Of a stretch of DNA of 64,000 bases, positions 22,141 to 42,300 are shown in pieces. Position 1 is the stretch's first letter. Every line of letters starts with the position of its first letter. The DNA is from Mycobacterium botniense (GTDB taxonomy: Bacteria > Actinomycetota > Actinomycetes > Mycobacteriales > Mycobacteriaceae). The translations under genes were made by a program, and so were the position numbers. Below the pieces are notes generated by a model. The model did no database searches, was not told the origin of the DNA, and saw nothing but the letters and a program-made list of their open reading frames with translations. The stretch covers positions 1 to 64,000 of the forward strand of contig NZ_BLKW01000004.1 in assembly GCF_010723305.1 (NCBI RefSeq), written 5' to 3'.

Positions 22141-23132
22141 CGTGACTCCTTTCCCTGATGACGAAATACCCACTGCGGCAACGCAACCGGAACGATTTCA
22201 CTGTCAGCTGCGTAACCGGGCCATTCATCCCAGTCCCGGCAGGCCCGGAATACGTCGATGGCCTCCCGCATGCTCCGGTAGCCGAGCTGGTAGGCGTCAG
22301 CGTCAAGCTCGACAACGGACACAAGATGCGGCGGTGTTTTCTCGACCAGCACGAACACGAACACCGGGTTCGGGTCGAGTTCAAGCAGGCGCGCCACCGT
22401 GACGTACCACGCCATTTGCACGTGGTAGCCGAAATTGTTTGCGTTGCGGCCGAATTCGCGCGGGTCAGCGGATTGACACGTTTTCAAATCCACTAGCCAC
22501 AAACGGCCGTCGCGTTGGGTCATCCAATCCGGTCGGGCGCGCAGCCGCACACCCGTCGCCGGGTCTCTCACCCACATCGACATTTCCGGCTCGCCAGCAT
22601 CGAACAGCTCGGCTGCGAGCCGGTGATGGATTTTGACTGCGTCACGCAGGTCGACCGCGGCGTCATAATCAGCGCGCAGGATGGGAACGCGCCCGGCCGC
22701 GCGGGCTTTGTCGCGGCATTCCCGAGCATGCTTGCTGCGCCAGTCCTCGGCGTCGACGACCTCTATCTCGTCGCCGCAGCCGAGCACCAGCGTGTGCACA
22801 ACAGTCCCGATGTCAAAGTGGGTCGCCGGCTCGGGTGGGTGATCAAGCTGCCACGCGTATTTCGCGGGCGCGGACAGCAGCAGCCGCGCCCCGGACGCTG
22901 ACAGGCTGTCACGGTCACTGTGATAGTCACTGTTGGGGATGCCCGCGTAAACCCCGTCCTCAAGCGGGATCGGACTGTTTTCGCTGTGCAGTTGGCGCGC
23001 GTCCACGTACAGCAGTTCGCGTTCCCCGGCCGGCCGCACACCCACGAGCCGCTCGGACGGCTCGACCACCACGGCGCGCCGCTTGCACACTGGCGTGTGC
23101 CACCACCAAACCTTGTCACCAGCCGCGAACAT
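22137..23132 (-). CDS. RecE/ExoVIII-like PD-(D/E)XK exonuclease
   Basis: Start ATG 23132 (GTG 23135 is an alternative) overlaps the WhiB-like stop by one base; 331 residues. An N-terminal 45-residue segment (KVWWWHTPVCKRRAVVVEPS) precedes the nuclease fold: GVYAGIPNSDYHSDRDSLSA, IGTVVHTLVLG, then RARPDWMTQRDGRLWLVDLK with the D and DLK catalytic residues, and NFGYHVQMAWYVTVAR. This matches the exodeoxyribonuclease 8 family that pairs with RecT. Confidence 0.85.
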   Translation of the reverse strand: MFAAGDKVWWWHTPVCKRRAVVVEPSERLVGVRPAGERELLYVDARQLHSENSPIPLEDGVYAGIPNSDYHSDRDSLSASGARLLLSAPAKYAWQLDHPPEPATHFDIGTVVHTLVLGCGDEIEVVDAEDWRSKHARECRDKARAAGRVPILRADYDAAVDLRDAVKIHHRLAAELFDAGEPEMSMWVRDPATGVRLRARPDWMTQRDGRLWLVDLKTCQSADPREFGRNANNFGYHVQMAWYVTVARLLELDPNPVFVFVLVEKTPPHLVSVVELDADAYQLGYRSMREAIDVFRACRDWDEWPGYAADSEIVPVALPQWVFRHQGKESR

Positions 23133-23577
23133 CACAACGCTCTGCTCCGAAACGCTTGATGGTCAATAGATTTCGGTGACGCCTTGCGGAGCAGTCCGCG
23201 GCGTTCGTTTACCGACAGGCCGCCCCAAATCCCGTACCGCTCCCGGTGGGTTAGCGCGTAATCCAGGCATTCAACGCGAACCTCGCACACCATGCAAACC
23301 CGTTTCGCCGCGGGATTGGCGCCCTTTTCCGGGAAAAAGGCTTCTGGGTCGCCGCGGCACGCAACACCTTCGGATTGCCGAAGCGCGGCGGTGACGACGG
23401 TTGCCGTGGTTGGTGGTCCCCCGCCGCGGCGAGGGCCACGTCAGCCGCGGCAGGGGAAGACGCGCGCCGCAACCCGAGCGCGACACCCTCGGCAACAGCC
23501 TGGGCGAAACGGATCGGGTAGCAGCCGTATTCGGTGAGCAAGTCGCACGGCAACCGCAACCAGTCGTTGAACCTCAC
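23132..23577 (-). pseudogene. YPIR small protein (copy B) fused in sequence to a WhiB-like domain without a start codon
   Basis: GTG 23577 overlaps the upstream stop and begins VRFNDWLRLPCDLLTEYGCY, then PIRFAQAVAEGVALG. In a different frame, from about 23440, the strand encodes a full WhiB core: CRGDPEAFFPEKG, RVCMVCEVRVECLDY and YGIWGGLSVNERRGLLRK, stopping at 23132. Upstream of the first WhiB Cys this frame has no ATG, GTG or TTG back to a stop at 23443-23441. A G5 run (plus-strand CCCCC, 23418-23422) lies where one added base, or a -1 slip, would join the two. WhiB proteins bind an Fe-S cluster and regulate transcription; phage versions can alter host sigma factor use. Broken gene, slip or missing start cannot be told apart. 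Confidence 0.65.
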
Positions 23578-23711
23578 GCCGCCTCCTTTGCGCGTTCGGC
23601 TGTGATCCGCGCTCCCCGTTTGCAGCGTTTGCACTTGCCGTGCCGCGCCAGCCGGCATTTGTCACCACCGCATCGCCGCCACTGCGAGATCAGCGAGTCG
23701 AGGACATTCAC
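23574..23711 (-). CDS. CGGDKC cysteine-rich small protein, copy B
   Basis: GTG 23711 overlaps the upstream stop and the gene's own stop overlaps the next GTG. The 45-residue product VNVLDSLISQWRRCGGDKCR ends with a KCKRCKRGARIT segment. Four cysteines in CxxxxC and CxxC pairs suggest a zinc-binding knuckle. It is paralogous to the gene at 25347-25478. Function unknown. Confidence 0.65.
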   Translation of the reverse strand: MNVLDSLISQWRRCGGDKCRLARHGKCKRCKRGARITAERAKEAA

Positions 23712-23872
23712 CGCGCCACCTGCCCCCTCAGTTGCTGAGACGCGTGTTTGCGCTGCTGTTTGCGCGCGAACACCTGAAACTCGGCGGTGTCGGCAAACCC
23801 GAACACTGCGGCCAGGATTCGGCACTCAGCCGCGTTGAGCGCCAGCGAATCAACATCCACCGCCGGTTTCAT
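23708..23872 (-). CDS. Small phage protein, 54 residues, function unknown
   Basis: ATG 23872 overlaps the stop of the membrane peptide. MKPAVDVDSLALNAAECRIL begins a probably helical protein with a basic C terminus (KQQRKHASQQLRGQ). It takes the same slot as the coiled-coil gene of copy A but is not similar to it. Confidence 0.6.
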   Translation of the reverse strand: MKPAVDVDSLALNAAECRILAAVFGFADTAEFQVFARKQQRKHASQQLRGQVAR

Positions 23873-23958
23873 GCCGACCTGCGCAGCCACTCGAAACCAA
23901 CAAGGCAAGCCACCGCGCTCACCGCCGCCAGCGCGGCAGTCAGCAGATCGGCGATCAC
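23869..23958 (-). CDS. 29-residue membrane peptide, copy B
   Basis: GTG 23958 overlaps the antirepressor stop (GTGA) and the stop overlaps ATG 23872. The product VIADLLTAALAAVSAVACLV followed by GFEWLRRSA is one hydrophobic helix with a charged C-terminal end. It is paralogous to the peptide at 25780-25872 (both end CL-V/I-GFE-W/Y-LRR). The shared sequence and exact coupling support translation despite the length. Role unknown; holin-like or signalling functions are possible. Confidence 0.65.
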   Translation of the reverse strand: MIADLLTAALAAVSAVACLVGFEWLRRSA

Positions 23959-24812
23959 TGGACCACCCCGACTCGGCTGGTGTAGTCAGACAGCAGCCGC
24001 TGCAACCCCTTCGGCGTCACTCGGGGTTGCGGAGGGTCGAGCACGAGCACGCCGGTTTTCGGGTGGTAGTGCGACTGCGGCAGCACCGACATGTAGCCGG
24101 CGTCGATGGCGGATTGCATGACCCGGTAACGGCCGTCACCGACAGCGCGTCTGATCCAGCCGCGGCGGTCCAGCTCGGCGAACAGGCGGCGCTCCCCGAC
24201 TTTGATCCCAGCGCGCGTCAACGACTGGGCAGCGTCACGCACAGACAGGTCACCGTCGGCGTCTAGCAGCTTGTCGGCGACCTCGGCTTTGGGCTCGAGT
24301 TCGGCGATTCGCTCGTCTTTGGCGGCGAGCATCTTCTGCGCCTCCAGCACGGCATGGGCCAGGAGTTCAGGACCAGACAGTGCTGGCGCGGCTGTCTCGG
24401 CTTCGCGGGTCCGGATCGCGAAATACGCCTGCGCGGCGGCCACCTCGGTCTTGCGAGGGTCACCGTTCATCGCCACCAGGTAGGCGGCGAAGCGCGAGAG
24501 GTGGAAATCTTCGCGAGTGGTCTTAGCGATCGGTTCCCGCAGCCGGGAAACGTTCGCGTCGACATCGTGACCTTGGGCAGCCATCGAAACGACGGCGCGT
24601 TCCACCGCGTCAGCGAAGCGCTCCCACTTCTCGTAGCCGAGAAGCGGCATCAAGTCGCGCGCCGACCAGTACTCGAAGCCGTCTGGACGGACGCGGCGTA
24701 TGCGGTCGAATGGCGAGACTTCGGCCGGCCGGCTGCGCTCCAGCGCGGCGAAGTATCCGGGCGGCAGTTTCTGAAAGTCGCGGGGTGGTTGCGTGTATTC
24801 TGTGTCTGACAT
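23955..24812 (-). CDS. Phage antirepressor with DinD-like N terminus and KilAC C terminus
   Basis: ATG 24812 has an AGGAAG site upstream; 285 residues. The N-terminal half (YWSARDLMPLLGYEKWERFA, DFHLSRFAAYLVAMNGDPRK) is BRO/DinD-like. After a coiled-coil linker (KDERIAELEPKAEVADKLLD) the C-terminal half (LSVRDAAQSLTRAGIKVGER, RLFAELDRRGWI) is a KilAC domain. Antirepressors of this type inactivate the phage repressor or related host proteins. It heads the second small-gene cluster. Confidence 0.85.
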   Translation of the reverse strand: MSDTEYTQPPRDFQKLPPGYFAALERSRPAEVSPFDRIRRVRPDGFEYWSARDLMPLLGYEKWERFADAVERAVVSMAAQGHDVDANVSRLREPIAKTTREDFHLSRFAAYLVAMNGDPRKTEVAAAQAYFAIRTREAETAAPALSGPELLAHAVLEAQKMLAAKDERIAELEPKAEVADKLLDADGDLSVRDAAQSLTRAGIKVGERRLFAELDRRGWIRRAVGDGRYRVMQSAIDAGYMSVLPQSHYHPKTGVLVLDPPQPRVTPKGLQRLLSDYTSRVGVVQ

Positions 24813-24868
24813 CCGGACCAACTTCCTGTTGTCGGTGCCCTCGGCCGCTGATCCCGGCCGGGGGCGAT

Positions 24869-25144
24869 TTACTTGTGGGCTTGCAATCGGTCGGCGGCGC
24901 GGGATAGGTCGTTGGCGAGCGAGCAGCAGTAGTACGGTGCGGGGCAATCGATGTGCTTGGCCCATTCCGCGAGCTGGTGGGCGGCGGCGCGCAGAAGTTT
25001 TGGATGCCCCGCGCCGGCGGCCTCGGCAATGGCCGGATCCGGCGCGGGACGTTTGCTCGCCGCGCCGGGTCTCTCCACCGGGGCGAGCGAAGTCTGCAGA
25101 ATGTTGCGGATGTCCTCGACGAGGCCGACCAGGCGCCCGATCAT
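24869..25144 (-). CDS. Small phage protein of unknown function
   Basis: ATG 25144 overlaps the upstream stop (ATGA). The 91-residue product MIGRLVGLVEDIRNILQTSL has amphipathic helices and several cysteines (HIDCPAPYYCCSLANDLSRA). No recognised domain. It ends the first small-gene cluster, 56 bases before the start of the KilAC antirepressor. Confidence 0.6.
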   Translation of the reverse strand: MIGRLVGLVEDIRNILQTSLAPVERPGAASKRPAPDPAIAEAAGAGHPKLLRAAAHQLAEWAKHIDCPAPYYCCSLANDLSRAADRLQAHK

Positions 25145-25350
25145 GATGCCCGCCTCGCTGGATGGTCGGTATGCCAGGGCCGGATGATCAGCGTCTCGCC
25201 GTCGCTCGGCCGGGTGTATTTCCAGCCGAGCGCGACGCCGGCGGCGATCGCCTGTGCCAATCGGATTGGATATGAGCCGAACTCGGTGATCAGGTCAACC
25301 GGCAGGTGTGCGAGGCAGAGAGAAGAGCGTAGAAGCTGTTTGGGCGTCAC
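25141..25350 (-). CDS. YPIR small protein, copy A
   Basis: GTG 25350 overlaps the upstream stop and is preceded by AAGGAGGGA. The 69-residue product has LPVDLITEFGSYPIRLAQAI followed by AAGVALGWKYTRPSDGETLI. The motif DL-I/L-TE-F/Y-GxYPIR and AxGVALG recurs in copy B (23577 downwards). The fold and role are unknown. Here the gene ends cleanly, unlike copy B. Confidence 0.65.
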   Translation of the reverse strand: MTPKQLLRSSLCLAHLPVDLITEFGSYPIRLAQAIAAGVALGWKYTRPSDGETLIIRPWHTDHPARRAS

Positions 25351-25478
25351 GATCCCTCCTTCTGTGTGCGCGCCATCGTGATTCGGAGGCCGCGTTCGCA
25401 GCGCGGGCATTTCGCCCGCTTGCATTTGTCACCGCCGCAGCGGCGCCACTGCGCGATCAAGGACTCCAAGACGCTCAT
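25347..25478 (-). CDS. CGGDKC cysteine-rich small protein, copy A
   Basis: ATG 25478 (MSVLESLIAQWRRCGGDKCK) aligns with copy B and gives 43 residues; an ATG at 25580, coupled to the previous stop by ATGA, would add 34 unrelated residues. The cysteine spacing (CGGDKC, then KCPRC) matches copy B, and the DNA of the two is also clearly related. It is likely a zinc-binding protein. The start is uncertain. Confidence 0.6.
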   Translation of the reverse strand: MSVLESLIAQWRRCGGDKCKRAKCPRCERGLRITMARTQKEGS

Positions 25479-25576
25479 GCGGTCATTGCTTTTCGTCCAG
25501 CCGCGGCTGAATGGCGCGTCGAGCGCGGGCGATAAAGCAGACCCCGATCTTGTAGCCGGACAGCTTGAATGAACGT

Positions 25577-25783
25577 TCATGGCGTCATCCGGTTCGCGTA
25601 AGCCTGCGTCGTGAGGTGATCGCGCTGCGCTTGTAGCGCCACGACTTCGCGCTGCAGTCGGTCTCGTTGGGCGATGAGTGGGGCGACGCGTTCGTTGAGC
25701 TGGTCGACGCTGCGATACGACGCCGCGATCGTGCTGCCAGGTACCTCGTAGCGCTCGAAGCGAGCCATCCGCTCCGTACTCAC
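25577..25783 (-). CDS. Coiled-coil small protein
   Basis: GTG 25783 overlaps the membrane-peptide stop (GTGA) and has AGGA seven bases upstream; ATG 25768 is an alternative. The 68-residue product VSTERMARFERYEVPGSTIA ends in a coiled coil (LIAQRDRLQREVVALQAQRD). Function unknown. Confidence 0.6.
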   Translation of the reverse strand: MSTERMARFERYEVPGSTIAASYRSVDQLNERVAPLIAQRDRLQREVVALQAQRDHLTTQAYANRMTP

Positions 25784-25872
25784 TGGCTGGTCCTGCGTAG
25801 GTATTCGAAGCCGATGAGGCAGAGGAAGCCGGCCAGCAGCGCGCCGGCGGCGGTGATGGTGTCGAGGATCAT
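25780..25872 (-). CDS. 30-residue membrane peptide, copy A
   Basis: ATG 25872 overlaps the antirepressor stop (ATGA) and the stop overlaps GTG 25783. It encodes MILDTITAAGALLAGFLCLI and then GFEYLRRTSQ, one transmembrane helix with a positive C terminus. It is paralogous to the peptide at 23869-23958, in the same position after an antirepressor. Confidence 0.65.
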   Translation of the reverse strand: MILDTITAAGALLAGFLCLIGFEYLRRTSQ

Positions 25873-26570
25873 TGCTCGAACCCCTCTGCCGCCAGCTCCC
25901 ACACCCACACCGGGAAGCTGTTGACCATCCCGAACAGTTGGTGTTGCACCGGATTTGGCTCAACACCGTGGCGGCGCGCGATCGTCGCCGCGCACTTGCC
26001 GAGGCGCCGCAGGTAGCGGGTGTGGGTCGGCAGCCCGGCCTGCCGGGCGTAGGCGAGCGCCGAAAGCCAGTCGTGGCGGCCTTCGATGGCGGCGAGCCGG
26101 TCGTCGGCGCGCTGAGCGATGGCCTTGGCTTCGGCGGCGTCGCGCTGGGCGGCCTCAATCTGGTCCAGTGCTGCGCGCAACACGTCGAGCTGCGACATGC
26201 CGCTGGGCTGGACTGCGACGCCGCGGTAGAAGAAGTCGCGCAGCGCCCGCGCAGCCTCACGCTGATAGGCGATCAGCACCGGGCGGGCATGCTCGGCCAC
26301 GCGGTTGACGGCGATGGTTGCCAGCCACATGGGGATGCAGTCGGCGTGCAGCCCGTACATGCGGTACGTCTTGCCGTCCGATCCAGTTGCGGTGATCATC
26401 ACCCCAACTGCCCATTTCGCCTGGTCGAGCTTGGCGCGCTGGCTACGGTGGTCGATCCCGAGCGCTTCGCACATGGGCTTGAGCGCGACGAACGGCTCAC
26501 CGTCGACCAGTGATGCCTGCATCGGCACATCGGTGCCGGGCACCGGGACAGCGACCAGGTCGGCGCTCAT
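25869..26570 (-). CDS. P22-type antirepressor
   Basis: ATG 26570 overlaps the Cro-like stop (ATGA). The 233-residue protein starts with a P22_AR_N-like domain (VDGEPFVALKPMCEALGIDH, then IPMWLATIAVNRV and LIAYQREAARALRDFFYRGV), then a coiled coil (LDQIEAAQRDAAEAKAIAQR) and a C-terminal region with Cys and His. It probably binds and inactivates a repressor. It heads the first small-gene cluster and is transcribed with the Cro-like gene. Confidence 0.85.
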   Translation of the reverse strand: MSADLVAVPVPGTDVPMQASLVDGEPFVALKPMCEALGIDHRSQRAKLDQAKWAVGVMITATGSDGKTYRMYGLHADCIPMWLATIAVNRVAEHARPVLIAYQREAARALRDFFYRGVAVQPSGMSQLDVLRAALDQIEAAQRDAAEAKAIAQRADDRLAAIEGRHDWLSALAYARQAGLPTHTRYLRRLGKCAATIARRHGVEPNPVQHQLFGMVNSFPVWVWELAAEGFEQ

Positions 26571-26854
26571 GCGTCGCCACCCTGGGTTTGGGCCGCGCCC
26601 GGGGTGTGAGCCCGAAGCTCATCCCCGGACGCAGCCCCGGCTCCGACCGAGTCCTCGGTGATGAGGGTCGTAAGCGGGACTTTGAGGTAGTCCGCGATGG
26701 CCTGCAGTTCATGGAGACGGAACGGGACACGGCCGAGTAACCGCTGCGAAATGTTCTGGCGCTGCATTCCTAGCTGCGCGGCCAGATCCGCCTGAGTCTT
26801 GTTGCGGCGGGCCAACTCTGCACGGATATTGCCCGCTACGTGGGATTGCGCCAT
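26567..26854 (-). CDS. Cro-like helix-turn-helix regulator
   Basis: ATG 26854 is preferred, with TTG 26863 possible. The 95-residue product contains NIRAELARRNKTQADLAAQL and RQNISQRLLGRVPFRLHELQ, an XRE-type helix-turn-helix, then a short tail. Being the first gene of the leftward operon and divergent from the repressor, it takes the Cro position and probably binds the intergenic operators. Confidence 0.85.
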   Translation of the reverse strand: MAQSHVAGNIRAELARRNKTQADLAAQLGMQRQNISQRLLGRVPFRLHELQAIADYLKVPLTTLITEDSVGAGAASGDELRAHTPGAAQTQGGDA

Positions 26855-26890: not shown

Positions 26891-26953
26891 TGACCACGCC
26901 GCTCACTCGGCGTGTCAAAACGCGCGGGCAAACATCATGCCCGCACGCTAGGC

Positions 26954-26983
26954 TTGTCACATGATCGCTGGGCGTGCAATAAT
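26954..26983 (+). promoter_or_regulatory. Repressor promoter, leaderless
   Basis: -35 TTGTCA (26954-26959), 18-base spacer, -10 AATAAT (26978-26983). The ATG at 26990 begins seven bases after the -10, so transcription and translation should start at the same base, a common arrangement in mycobacteria. Confidence 0.65.
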
Positions 26984-26989
26984 GTGGTC

Positions 26990-27343
26990 ATGACGACACA
27001 CTCTGCTGCTGGTAAGGGCGGCGAGGAAACACTGACCCAAGCCGTGGCGCGGCGTTTGCGTGGTCAACTCGCCGAGCTAATGATCAGCCGAAAACAGTTC
27101 AGCGAACTGACCGGCTGGGACCGAATGTATGTCTATCGCCGGCTACGCGGGGAAACGGCGATGGACACGGCCGAGCTCGAGCACATCGAGCGCACCGCGG
27201 GAATCGCCGCACATTTCCTACTCACCGGCAATGAGCCAACACCTTCGCCGGACCCTCCTCCGGGTCTCCCGAACCAATTGAAGACCCGCCGCAGAAACCG
27301 ACGAAGGGTTAGCTCGCGTACGAAGGACCAACCAACAGGTTGA
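26990..27343 (+). CDS. Immunity repressor-like helix-turn-helix protein
   Basis: ATG 26990 gives 117 residues. A helix-turn-helix (LTQAVARRLRGQLAELMISR, then KQFSELTGWDRMYVYRRLRG) is followed by LEHIERTAGIAAHFLLTG and a Pro-rich, very basic tail (KTRRRNRRRVSSRTKDQ). It is the only rightward prophage gene and ends 75 bases before fadA. In phages with integration-dependent immunity the attachment site lies in the 3' part of the repressor gene, so the tail may be partly host sequence. That reading is inference. Confidence 0.75.
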   Translation: MTTHSAAGKGGEETLTQAVARRLRGQLAELMISRKQFSELTGWDRMYVYRRLRGETAMDTAELEHIERTAGIAAHFLLTGNEPTPSPDPPPGLPNQLKTRRRNRRRVSSRTKDQPTG

Positions 27344-27418
27344 TCGGGCCTGTTAGGGTGACGGGCTGAACAGTAACGTCATTTGTGACCAGCCCGCACC
27401 TGGTATGAGGAACGAGCC
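27344..27418. other. Prophage-chromosome junction region and fadA leader
   Basis: 75 bases between the repressor stop and fadA. It contains a fadA ribosome site (GAGGAACGAGCC before ATG 27419). No tRNA gene and no recognisable att core can be seen; the left junction needed to define the core is outside the window. Confidence 0.5.
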
Positions 27419-28630
27419 ATGTCCGAAGAAGCCTTCATCTACGAGGCCATCCGCACGCCGCGCGGCAAGCAGAAGAACGGGTCGTTGCATGAGGTCAAGC
27501 CGCTGAGCCTGGTGGTCGGCCTGATCAACGAGCTGCGCAATCGCTACCCCGACCTGGACGAGAACATGATCAGCGACGTCATCCTCGGTGTGGTTTCACC
27601 GGTCGGCGACCAGGGCGCGGATATCGCGCGGGCCGCCGTCCTGGCGGCCGGTATGCCCGATACCACCGGGGGCGTGCAGCTCAACCGATTCTGCGCCTCG
27701 GGGCTGGAGGCCGTAAACATGGCCGCGCAGAAGGTGCGCTCCGGGTGGGACGACCTGGTGCTGGCCGGGGGTGTGGAGTCGATGAGCCGGGTGCCGATGG
27801 GCTCCGACGGCGGCGCGATGGCGCTGGACCCGGCCACCAACTACGACATCGGCTTCGTGCCGCAGGGCATCAGCGCCGACCTGATCGCCACCCTCGAAGG
27901 GTTTTCCCGCGAGGACGTCGACGCCTACGCGTTGCGTTCTCAGCAGCGCGCCGCTGCGGCCTGGTCGGGCGGGTATTTCGCCAAGTCCGTGGTACCGGTG
28001 CGCGATCAGAACGGGCTGGTGATCCTCGACCACGACGAGCACATGCGGCCGGACACCACGATGGACGGGCTGGCCAAACTCAAGCCGGCGTTCGAGACCA
28101 TCGGCGCGATAGGTGGTTTCGACGATGTCGCGCTGCAGAAATACCACTGGGTGGAGAAGATCAACCACGTCCACACCGGCGGCAACAGCTCAGGCATCGT
28201 CGACGGGGCGGCGTTGGTGCTGATCGGGTCGGAGGCCGCCGGCACAGCGCAGGGCCTGACCCCGAGGGCGCGTATCGTGGCCACCGCGACCAGCGGCGCC
28301 GAGCCGACGATCATGCTGACCGGTCCCCAACCGGCCACCCGCAAGGTGCTCGACCGGGCCGGTCTCACACTGGAGGACATCGACCTCTTCGAGCTCAACG
28401 AGGCGTTCGCCTCGGTAGTGCTCAAGTACCAGAAGGACTTAGGTATTCCCGACGAGAAGCTCAACGTCAACGGCGGTGCGATCGCGATGGGTCACCCGCT
28501 GGGCGCCACCGGCGCGATGATCCTGGGCACCATGGTCGACGAACTGGAACGGCGCAATGCGCGGCGTGCCCTGGTCACGTTGTGCGTCGGCGGCGGTATG
28601 GGTGTGGCCACCATCATCGAGCGAGTCTGA
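27419..28630 (+). CDS. fadA: Acetyl-CoA acyltransferase FadA
   Basis: A 403-residue thiolase. The nucleophile is Cys92 ([10 protein letters not shown]); His359 (GHPLGATGA) and Cys389 (TLCVGGGMG) complete the active site, with NEAFA between. It performs the last step of beta-oxidation, cleaving 3-ketoacyl-CoA. It is followed after 16 bases by fadB, with which it should form the trifunctional enzyme. The same pair occurs in M. tuberculosis as Rv0859-Rv0860. The prophage ends just upstream, so its promoter may have been changed. Confidence 0.96.

Positions 28631-41111: not shown

Positions 41112-42300
<1,189 letters not shown>

What the first reader, a model, noticed from the sequence alone, without database searches (positions are those of the whole stretch)
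23132..26570. Duplicated five-gene cassette of antirepressor plus tiny proteins
The same gene order occurs twice in tandem: antirepressor, about 30-residue membrane peptide ending GFE-(Y/W)-LRR, one variable small protein, a CGGDKC four-cysteine protein, and a protein with DL(I/L)TE-GxYPIR and AxGVALG. The membrane peptide, Cys protein and YPIR protein are paralogous between copies, also at DNA level, while the antirepressor type (P22-like or DinD/KilAC) and the third gene differ. Junctions are mostly 4-base stop/start overlaps (25580/25478 is the exception). A conserved trio carried behind exchangeable antirepressors looks like a module with its own function, such as control of induction or of competing phages.
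Basis: partly seen in the sequence, partly recalled or inferred. Interest (0 to 1): 0.8.

Follow-up and report, generated by a model that had tools for sequence, protein, structure and literature searches.

The report
Doubled antirepressor cassette in mycobacterial prophage
A prophage in what looks like a mycobacterial genome carries two diverged copies, side by side, of an early gene set (a switch protein followed by tiny proteins of unknown function); the tiny proteins look real and conserved and one set seems to have been exchanged between phages as a block, but what they do is untested.

Summary
Two units lie in tandem on the minus strand: antirepressor > ~30-aa membrane peptide > variable small protein > 4-Cys protein > 'YPIR' protein. 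The unit has one more part: YPIR is the N-terminal piece of a larger protein whose C-terminal domain ('LRAAA...APYYC') is a separate overlapping ORF in unit 1, is fused in relative G372, and is missing from unit 2 through a deletion that also truncated WhiB. The small genes show purifying selection (dN/dS about 0.1-0.4, small samples). In unit 2 the stretch from the end of KilAC to YPIR differs from G372 at 5 of 737 bases, against 36 of 291 just before it and 97 of 2400 further on, so antirepressor end and small genes came together. The join lies in a spacer shared with a third lineage (G303). The exact trio is rare (2 lineages); the Cys family is wider (18 distinct neighbourhoods read), with an antirepressor-type gene nearby in 10 of 18. 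Best reading: a mosaic doubling of an early-lytic 'switch plus host-takeover' module giving one phage two antirepressors. Roles of the tiny proteins are inferred; none of eight small-protein sequences scanned has a convincing family match.

The parts
26912..27343 (+). immunity-repressor-like HTH gene, divergent
   Evidence: PHROG 2328 transcriptional repressor 4e-11; Pfam BetR and HTH_3 below cut-off
26567..26854 (-). Cro-like HTH gene, head of the early operon
   Evidence: HTH_3 6.6e-9; its tail matches the G303 prophage
25869..26570 (-). antirepressor 1, P22_AR_N type
   Evidence: P22_AR_N 3e-28, PHROG 524 Ant
25780..25872 (-). membrane peptide 1, 30 aa, ends GFEYLRRTSQ
25577..25783 (-). variable third gene of unit 1, coiled-coil, 68 aa
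   Evidence: only weak coiled-coil matches
25347..25478 (-). 4-Cys protein 1, 43 aa (alternative start 25580, 77 aa)
25141..25350 (-). YPIR protein 1, 69 aa
24869..25144 (-). LRAAA protein, 91 aa; C-terminal part of the YPIR-LRAAA gene of relatives
24813..24868 (-). spacer between the two units, with a possible hairpin; 24875-24822 is 92.6% identical over 54 bp to the spacer after LRAAA in G303
23955..24812 (-). antirepressor 2, DinD-like Bro-N + KilAC
   Evidence: Bro-N 1e-6, ANT 6e-21; DinD model 2e-33, below cut-off
23344..24080 (-). stretch nearly identical to G372 (5 differences in 737 bp): probably a recently exchanged segment; its right end is hidden by the deletion
23869..23958 (-). 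membrane peptide 2, 29 aa, ends GFEWLRRSA
23708..23872 (-). variable third gene of unit 2, 'AECRILA' protein, 54 aa
   Evidence: relatives in L008, G303, G372
23574..23711 (-). 4-Cys protein 2, 45 aa
   Evidence: model
23251..23577 (-). YPIR protein 2; from about 23343 downwards its frame is read-through after a deletion of the LRAAA part
23132..23293 (-). truncated WhiB remnant; N-terminus lost at the same deletion
   Evidence: Whib Pfam 2e-11 on profile 34-64 of 65; whole WhiB in G372; first ATG/GTG/TTG start in this frame is at 23293

Best explanation
This is the start of the early lytic operon of a temperate, probably mycobacterial phage in which two diverged versions of one exchangeable module stand in tandem through recombination. 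SHOWN: each version is an antirepressor followed by overlapping tiny genes (membrane peptide, a variable protein, a 4-Cys protein, YPIR/LRAAA); unit 1 has G303-like flanks, unit 2 a G372-like body; one stretch of unit 2 is far closer to G372 than its surroundings; unit 2 lacks the LRAAA part and the start of WhiB that G372 has. INFERRED: when repression fails, HTH and antirepressors are made first. The antirepressors bind and disable phage repressors (family knowledge), and two different types give two specificities, so the phage may also act on co-resident prophages (the same genome holds a second prophage with a related module). The coupled tiny proteins are made at the same moment and act on the host: the peptide in the membrane, the Cys protein as a small metal-binding, basic adaptor on a host protein or nucleic acid, as early takeover or superinfection-exclusion factors. 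Joint inheritance with the end of the KilAC domain suggests, but does not show, that peptide and antirepressor work together.
For: Gene order, overlaps and codon scores; domains. Relatives: G372 (L072), G303 (L070, L071), own second prophage (L008), IMGVR contig L041 (99.8% identical to G372 over the module). Co-transfer: against G372, 36 differences in 24371-24081, 5 in the 737 bases 24080-23344, 97 in the 2400 bases 23159-20760; no 737-column window of the downstream alignment has 5 or fewer (best 18; Fisher p 6e-7 against downstream; p 1e-7 for 35 of 417 KilAC bases against 3 of 385 TM-to-Cys bases). Selection. Junction spacer shared with G303, likeness ending about a dozen bases past the antirepressor 2 start codon. 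Precedents: mycobacteriophage genomes exchange the immunity cassette by recombination at lysis and RecE/RecT genes (PMC10700106, passages); antirepressors act across prophages (PMC3121763, abstract); frequently co-transferred genes tend to be functionally related in lambdoid phages (PMC9836094, abstract).
Against: No expression, binding or phenotype data. Only 2 of 59 distinct antirepressor loci in viral contigs carry the Cys protein and 8 of 18 Cys neighbourhoods read show no antirepressor-type gene, so a functional tie is not general. Short downstream patches are also close to G372 (1-3 differences in some 150-base windows), and the right end of the exchanged stretch is hidden by the deletion. 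Metal binding is inferred from four Cys; the model is only moderate (pLDDT 79, pTM 0.45) and has no PDB fold match. dN/dS rests on 28-59 codons for the tiny genes, with synonymous sites near saturation in most pairs (3 of 10 Cys pairs undefined).
Confidence: 0.55

Rival explanations
1. Plain mosaicism: the tiny genes are filler in a recombination-prone early region. The doubling is a chance product with no joint function; each tiny protein has its own unrelated role or none.
For: 30 of 59 distinct antirepressor loci have some small TM protein within four genes downstream; gene content between regulator and recombination genes varies widely (output partly cut); unit 2 has lost a domain and WhiB is broken.
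Against: The same unusual families recur in the same order in diverged prophages with purifying selection, and at E <= 1e-4 LRAAA was not found away from a Cys gene (5 places in 3 of 396 genomes; the query rows come from those same loci).
Confidence: 0.27
2. A superinfection-exclusion or anti-phage device: membrane peptide plus Cys protein form a two-part system that shuts down the membrane or an essential process when another phage enters; the antirepressor is only its neighbour.
For: Position in an early operon, a tiny membrane peptide, recent exchange. In phage Girr 29 of 102 genes, many of them small, inhibit growth when overexpressed (PMC11075535, passages). Antirepressor 2 matches candidate defence models (PDC-S13 4e-38, PDC-S05 1e-17).
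Against: No PADLOC match for the peptide, Cys, YPIR, LRAAA or AECRILA proteins; the coil matches LmuB at only 0.0015; the antirepressor 2 matches cover its DinD-like N-terminal domain, which also matches a type I specificity-subunit model (1e-19), so they say little about function. The genes sit behind the lytic switch and are probably silent in the lysogen (inference).
Confidence: 0.1
3. A regulated antirepressor: the membrane peptide and Cys protein bind the KilAC domain and hold the antirepressor at the membrane until a cue arrives.
For: The end of KilAC and the tiny genes came together while the N-terminal half differs.
Against: The breakpoint lies inside KilAC, so co-transfer may reflect homology alone; no KilAC domain was detected in antirepressor 1, which is followed by the same peptide family.
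Confidence: 0.08

Closest known systems
BRO/KilAC and P22-type phage antirepressors
   Same: Both switch proteins of the cassette belong here by domain; position next to a Cro-like gene and a divergent repressor-like gene
   Different: Two different types in tandem in one operon, each with its own set of tiny genes
TF-smORF induction modules of polylysogens (PMC10432266; abstract, outline and section 4 read)
   Same: Small proteins of prophages that decide prophage fate; polylysogenic host
   Different: There a transcription factor activates a divergent small ORF that disables cI; here tiny ORFs overlap behind an antirepressor. No evidence that the small proteins touch the repressor
Trans-acting antirepressors of Salmonella prophages Gifsy/Fels (PMC3121763; abstract and outline read)
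   Same: Several antirepressors and co-resident prophages, possible crosstalk
   Different: Those are small antirepressors, the Gifsy ones under LexA control and the Fels-1 one under its phage repressor; no call here compared their sequences
Immunity-cassette exchange in mycobacteriophages Butters and Island3 (PMC10700106; passages read)
   Same: Early region swapped by recombination, one crossover in RecE/RecT
   Different: There a replacement, here a tandem joining of two versions
WhiB-like phage regulators (PMC8612146, PMC11075535; passages read)
   Same: A WhiB gene follows the module in the relative G372
   Different: The window's WhiB is truncated; the 4-Cys protein is not WhiB (no Pfam match)

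Membership tests
BRO/KilAC antirepressor (antirepressor 2) | Bro-N and KilAC (ANT) domains above curated cut-offs | tested here: met
   Bro-N 29.6 bits (cut-off 25.6), ANT 75.3 (25.3)
BRO/KilAC antirepressor (antirepressor 2) | relieves repression | not testable with these tools
   needs a reporter assay
P22-type antirepressor (antirepressor 1) | P22_AR_N domain above cut-off | tested here: met
   98.7 bits, cut-off 30.7
WhiB | complete Whib domain with four Cys | tested here: not met
   only profile 34-64 of 65 matched in the window remnant; first start at 23293; complete in G372
known small-protein families (Pfam, NCBIfam, PHROGs) | significant match of the Cys, YPIR, LRAAA, AECRILA or TM proteins | tested here: not met
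   none for Cys, YPIR 1, AECRILA, TM; LRAAA only PHROG 33312 at E 0.07. TM peptides were not scanned with Pfam, TM 1 not with PHROGs, YPIR 2 with none
known anti-phage defence (PADLOC) | match to defence models | tested here: not met
   no match for 7 of 8 small-protein sequences, coil 0.0015 to LmuB; antirepressor 1 none; antirepressor 2 matches PDC-S13 (4e-38), Specificity_I (1e-19), PDC-S05 (1e-17) through its DinD-like domain
TF-smORF induction module | transcription factor with a divergent small ORF that inactivates the repressor | tested here: not met
   small ORFs are co-directional and overlap the antirepressor; repressor inactivation not testable here
zinc-binding small protein (4-Cys) | four invariant Cys in a compact fold | tested here: inconclusive
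   4 Cys invariant in 14 of 14 aligned; model helix-loop-helix, pLDDT 79, no PDB fold match

The most novel reading that the evidence does not exclude
The membrane peptide, 4-Cys protein and YPIR-LRAAA protein form, with the antirepressor, one portable membrane-linked induction device of Mycobacteriales phages that senses an event at the envelope (for example entry of another phage) and releases the antirepressor; carrying two versions lets one prophage respond to two cues or disable two repressors, including that of the co-resident prophage.
Probability: 0.08. Interest if true: 0.8.

Novelty: new variant of a known kind. Interest (0 to 1): 0.42.

Why it matters
It describes several families of tiny phage proteins that the libraries scanned do not hold and that sit behind antirepressors in mycobacterial-type prophages, shows one such set probably exchanged recently between prophages together with the end of the antirepressor, and gives a natural genome with two antirepressor types in one operon beside a second prophage carrying a related module: a ready test of how antirepressors and their companions shape prophage crosstalk.

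Tried and rejected
Chance ORFs: rejected; coding scores, overlaps, orthologues and dN/dS argue for genes. Recent tandem duplication: rejected; the copies differ too much (Cys 64% and YPIR 47% aa identity) and the two units resemble different lineages. WhiB as the identity of the Cys protein: rejected. Toxin-antitoxin or defence pair: no family support for the small proteins. The trio as a general companion of antirepressors: rejected by the census (82 of 83 loci gene-called, L150 dropped; 59 distinct by identical last 60 residues of the antirepressor, so near-identical loci may still count apart). Weak YPIR hits (22 genomes besides G000, best E 0.002, some with stops inside) were judged chance; the profile search of 396 genomes found only G000 and G372. 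Weak Cys hits not read: G552, G209, G342, G396; G066, G062, G022, G154, G060, G107, G197, G142 (G062, G154 and G060 were scanned with a motif without a match). Also unread: L168 (G008) and L047, where my motif scans printed nothing. Four of the six genome contigs pattern hits lie in unrelated bacteria and were not followed. Led nowhere: PDB sequence search, Foldseek PDB (none) and viral (6 matches, best E 2.8), LRAAA model (pLDDT 66.5), phage tblastn with YPIR, LRAAA and AECRILA (no match at E <= 1), spacer search in phages (none) and viral contigs (one 18-base match, not followed), literature search for the motif CGGDKC (0 papers). The outputs were cut in view; the census totals come, and one search shows again what cut for G090 and G104.
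Full report
OBSERVATION. The window lies in G000:C4:1-64000 of a 4.34 Mb genome, in a genus of which 396 genomes were searched. The left part, up to about 27.4 kb, reads as a prophage that is cut by the contig start. On the minus strand follow HTH, P22-type antirepressor, 30-aa membrane peptide, coiled-coil, 4-Cys, YPIR and LRAAA; then, after a 56-base spacer, DinD/KilAC antirepressor, 29-aa membrane peptide, AECRILA, 4-Cys and YPIR. 9 of 11 junctions are 4-base overlaps; coil/Cys and the spacer are not. Cys and YPIR copies match at DNA level; the membrane peptides match as proteins only, against 0 of 2000 shuffles.

WHAT THE UNIT REALLY IS. In the relative G372 the gene after Cys encodes one 113-aa protein: YPIR at the N-terminus, 'LRAAAxQLxEW...C.APYYC' at the C-terminus. 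In G303 a 137-aa protein holds the same place with LRAAA but another N-terminus. In the window's unit 1 the two parts are separate overlapping ORFs. In unit 2 the LRAAA part is gone: the IMGVR contig L041 matches the window at 948-1974 and again from 4220 on, and the 2.2 kb between are absent from the window. The window's YPIR frame therefore runs on into WhiB sequence in another frame, and WhiB keeps only an internal start. In G372 WhiB is complete.

RELATIVES. The Cys family (four invariant Cys, 'SLIAQWRRCGGDKC...CKRCxRG') is found in few genomes: 12 of 396 genus genomes at E <= 1e-3, of which eight (G000, G157, G303, G372, G399, G295, G492, G383) lie at 1.7e-11 or better and the other four at 1.1e-4 or weaker; 13 of 201 family genomes at E <= 0.01 with a single sequence as query; 2 of 296 phylum genomes at E <= 1e-4, the own one and one of the same family. 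In phages it is in 5 records by tblastn at E <= 1 (GMA3 twice, Kuwabara, Gudmit, Dmitri), all of Gordonia. The Kuwabara copy (L004 2980-3117) is not annotated and overlaps the annotated start of the antirepressor gene.

I read 18 distinct neighbourhoods: window 1; window 2 with G372 and L041; G303; L008; L043; L044/G157; G295; L096; Kuwabara; Gudmit; Dmitri; GMA3; G104; G090; G141; G399; G492; G383. An antirepressor-type gene lies within about 3 kb in 10 of 18 (in Kuwabara it follows the Cys gene). In 8 of these the domains were tested; G104 (Rha-like) and G090 (BRO-like) were judged by eye, and a partial G104 protein gave no Pfam hit. The other 8 were judged by annotation or by eye, and for L044/G157 only 1.4 kb upstream is held. 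The GFE(W/Y)LRR peptide occurs in 3 of 18, AECRILA in 3, LRAAA in 4, YPIR in 2. LRAAA was found at E <= 1e-4 in 3 of 396 genomes, five places, each right after a Cys gene or, in unit 1, after the YPIR ORF that follows it; the query rows come from four of these places, so this shows a lack of stray copies rather than an independent link.

SELECTION AND EXCHANGE. Pairwise dN/dS: Cys 0.17-0.43 (7 of 10 pairs; 3 undefined); membrane peptide 0.21-0.43 (and 0 between copy 2 and G372, one synonymous change); AECRILA 0.11-0.38; YPIR copy 1 against copy 2 0.28; LRAAA-containing genes 0.29-0.79, where the linkers align poorly; KilAC segment 0.07. Copy 2 YPIR against G372 over its full length is 0.89, as expected where the read-through tail is included. 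Against G372 the antirepressor segment 24371-24081 carries 36 differences, the next 737 bases (24080-23344) only 5, and 23159-20760 beyond the deletion 97 in 2400; no 737-column window of the downstream alignment has 5 or fewer (best 18). Synonymous differences show the same contrast (0.26 per site in KilAC, 0 to 0.04 in the three tiny genes), so it is recency and not only constraint. Some shorter downstream windows are nearly as close (1-3 in 150), and the right end of the stretch is hidden by the deletion. The tiny genes thus came recently in one stretch with the end of the antirepressor; how much more came with them is open.

JUNCTION. The spacer before antirepressor 2 is 92.6% identical over 54 bases to the spacer after LRAAA in G303, and with gaps the likeness runs to about a dozen bases past the start codon (score 99, best of 300 shuffles 29). 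The HTH tail before antirepressor 1 is also G303-like (score 71, best of 300 shuffles 33). Unit 1 thus sits in a G303-like frame and unit 2 brings a G372-like body: a join of two lineages. The spacer may fold as a hairpin (z -2.0, 8 of 200 shuffles fold as well), which is modest.

CENSUS OF ANTIREPRESSORS. Of 83 viral-contig loci with a relative of either antirepressor (66, 17), 82 could be gene-called and 59 are distinct. The next gene overlaps by 1 or 4 bases in 33 of 59; a TM peptide of at most 60 aa follows directly in 5; some TM protein of at most 100 aa lies within four genes in 30; the Cys family is in 2. Small membrane proteins in this region are therefore common and prove little; the specific families do.

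MECHANISM. Antirepressor action is established knowledge for the domain families. Two types in one operon suggest two targets. The own genome holds a second prophage (L008) with Bro-N and KilAC proteins, AECRILA, Cys and LRAAA, so crosstalk is possible; Salmonella antirepressors do this (PMC3121763, abstract). The 4-Cys protein is modelled as helix, Cys loop, helix (pLDDT 79) with no PDB fold match; metal binding is inference. None of the eight small-protein sequences scanned (both Cys, both TM, YPIR 1, LRAAA, AECRILA, coil) has a convincing family match (not every sequence was scanned with every library). Antirepressor 2 matches candidate defence models through its DinD-like domain, which I read as shared domain and not as function.

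PRINT. Seven literature searches (at most 15 papers listed each) listed nothing that, by title and abstract start, describes this unit; CGGDKC occurs in 0 papers of the held library. Papers were seen as stated under Closest known systems; PMC9934374 was read in passages, PMC9836094 as abstract and outline.

VERDICT. A real and well-observed feature, best read as a doubled mosaic early-lytic module.

Noticed in passing
window 23132-23293: WhiB remnant behind the module, truncated at the deletion that also removed the LRAAA part of unit 2; complete in relative G372.
   Followed up: yes
L004 2980-3117 (Gordonia phage Kuwabara): Unannotated Cys-family ORF overlapping the annotated start of antirepressor gene 52 by 26 bases.
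   Followed up: partly
L070 and L071 (G303:C1): Two near-identical prophage early regions (99.87% over 11,154 columns, gaps only) about 47 kb apart in one genome; in one the antirepressor gene is called as two pieces.
   Followed up: partly
L008 (G000:C2:22000-36000): Second prophage in the same genome with a related module; no YPIR seen there.
   Followed up: partly
window 42081-42288: c-di-AMP riboswitch (Rfam RF00379, 54.9 bits) on the minus strand just upstream of the gene at 41112-42071, which looks like a resuscitation-promoting factor (by eye).
   Followed up: no
window 24813-24868: Spacer between the two units may form a GC-rich hairpin (z -2.0) and is shared with G303.
   Followed up: partly
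window 26912-27419: Repressor-like gene ends 75 bases before a thiolase-type gene (by eye); I saw no integrase at this end, without a dedicated search, and the contig begins inside the prophage.
   Followed up: no
L041: The IMGVR contig, 99.8% identical to G372 over the module, shows frame breaks in the antirepressor and YPIR genes where G372 is open.
   Followed up: no
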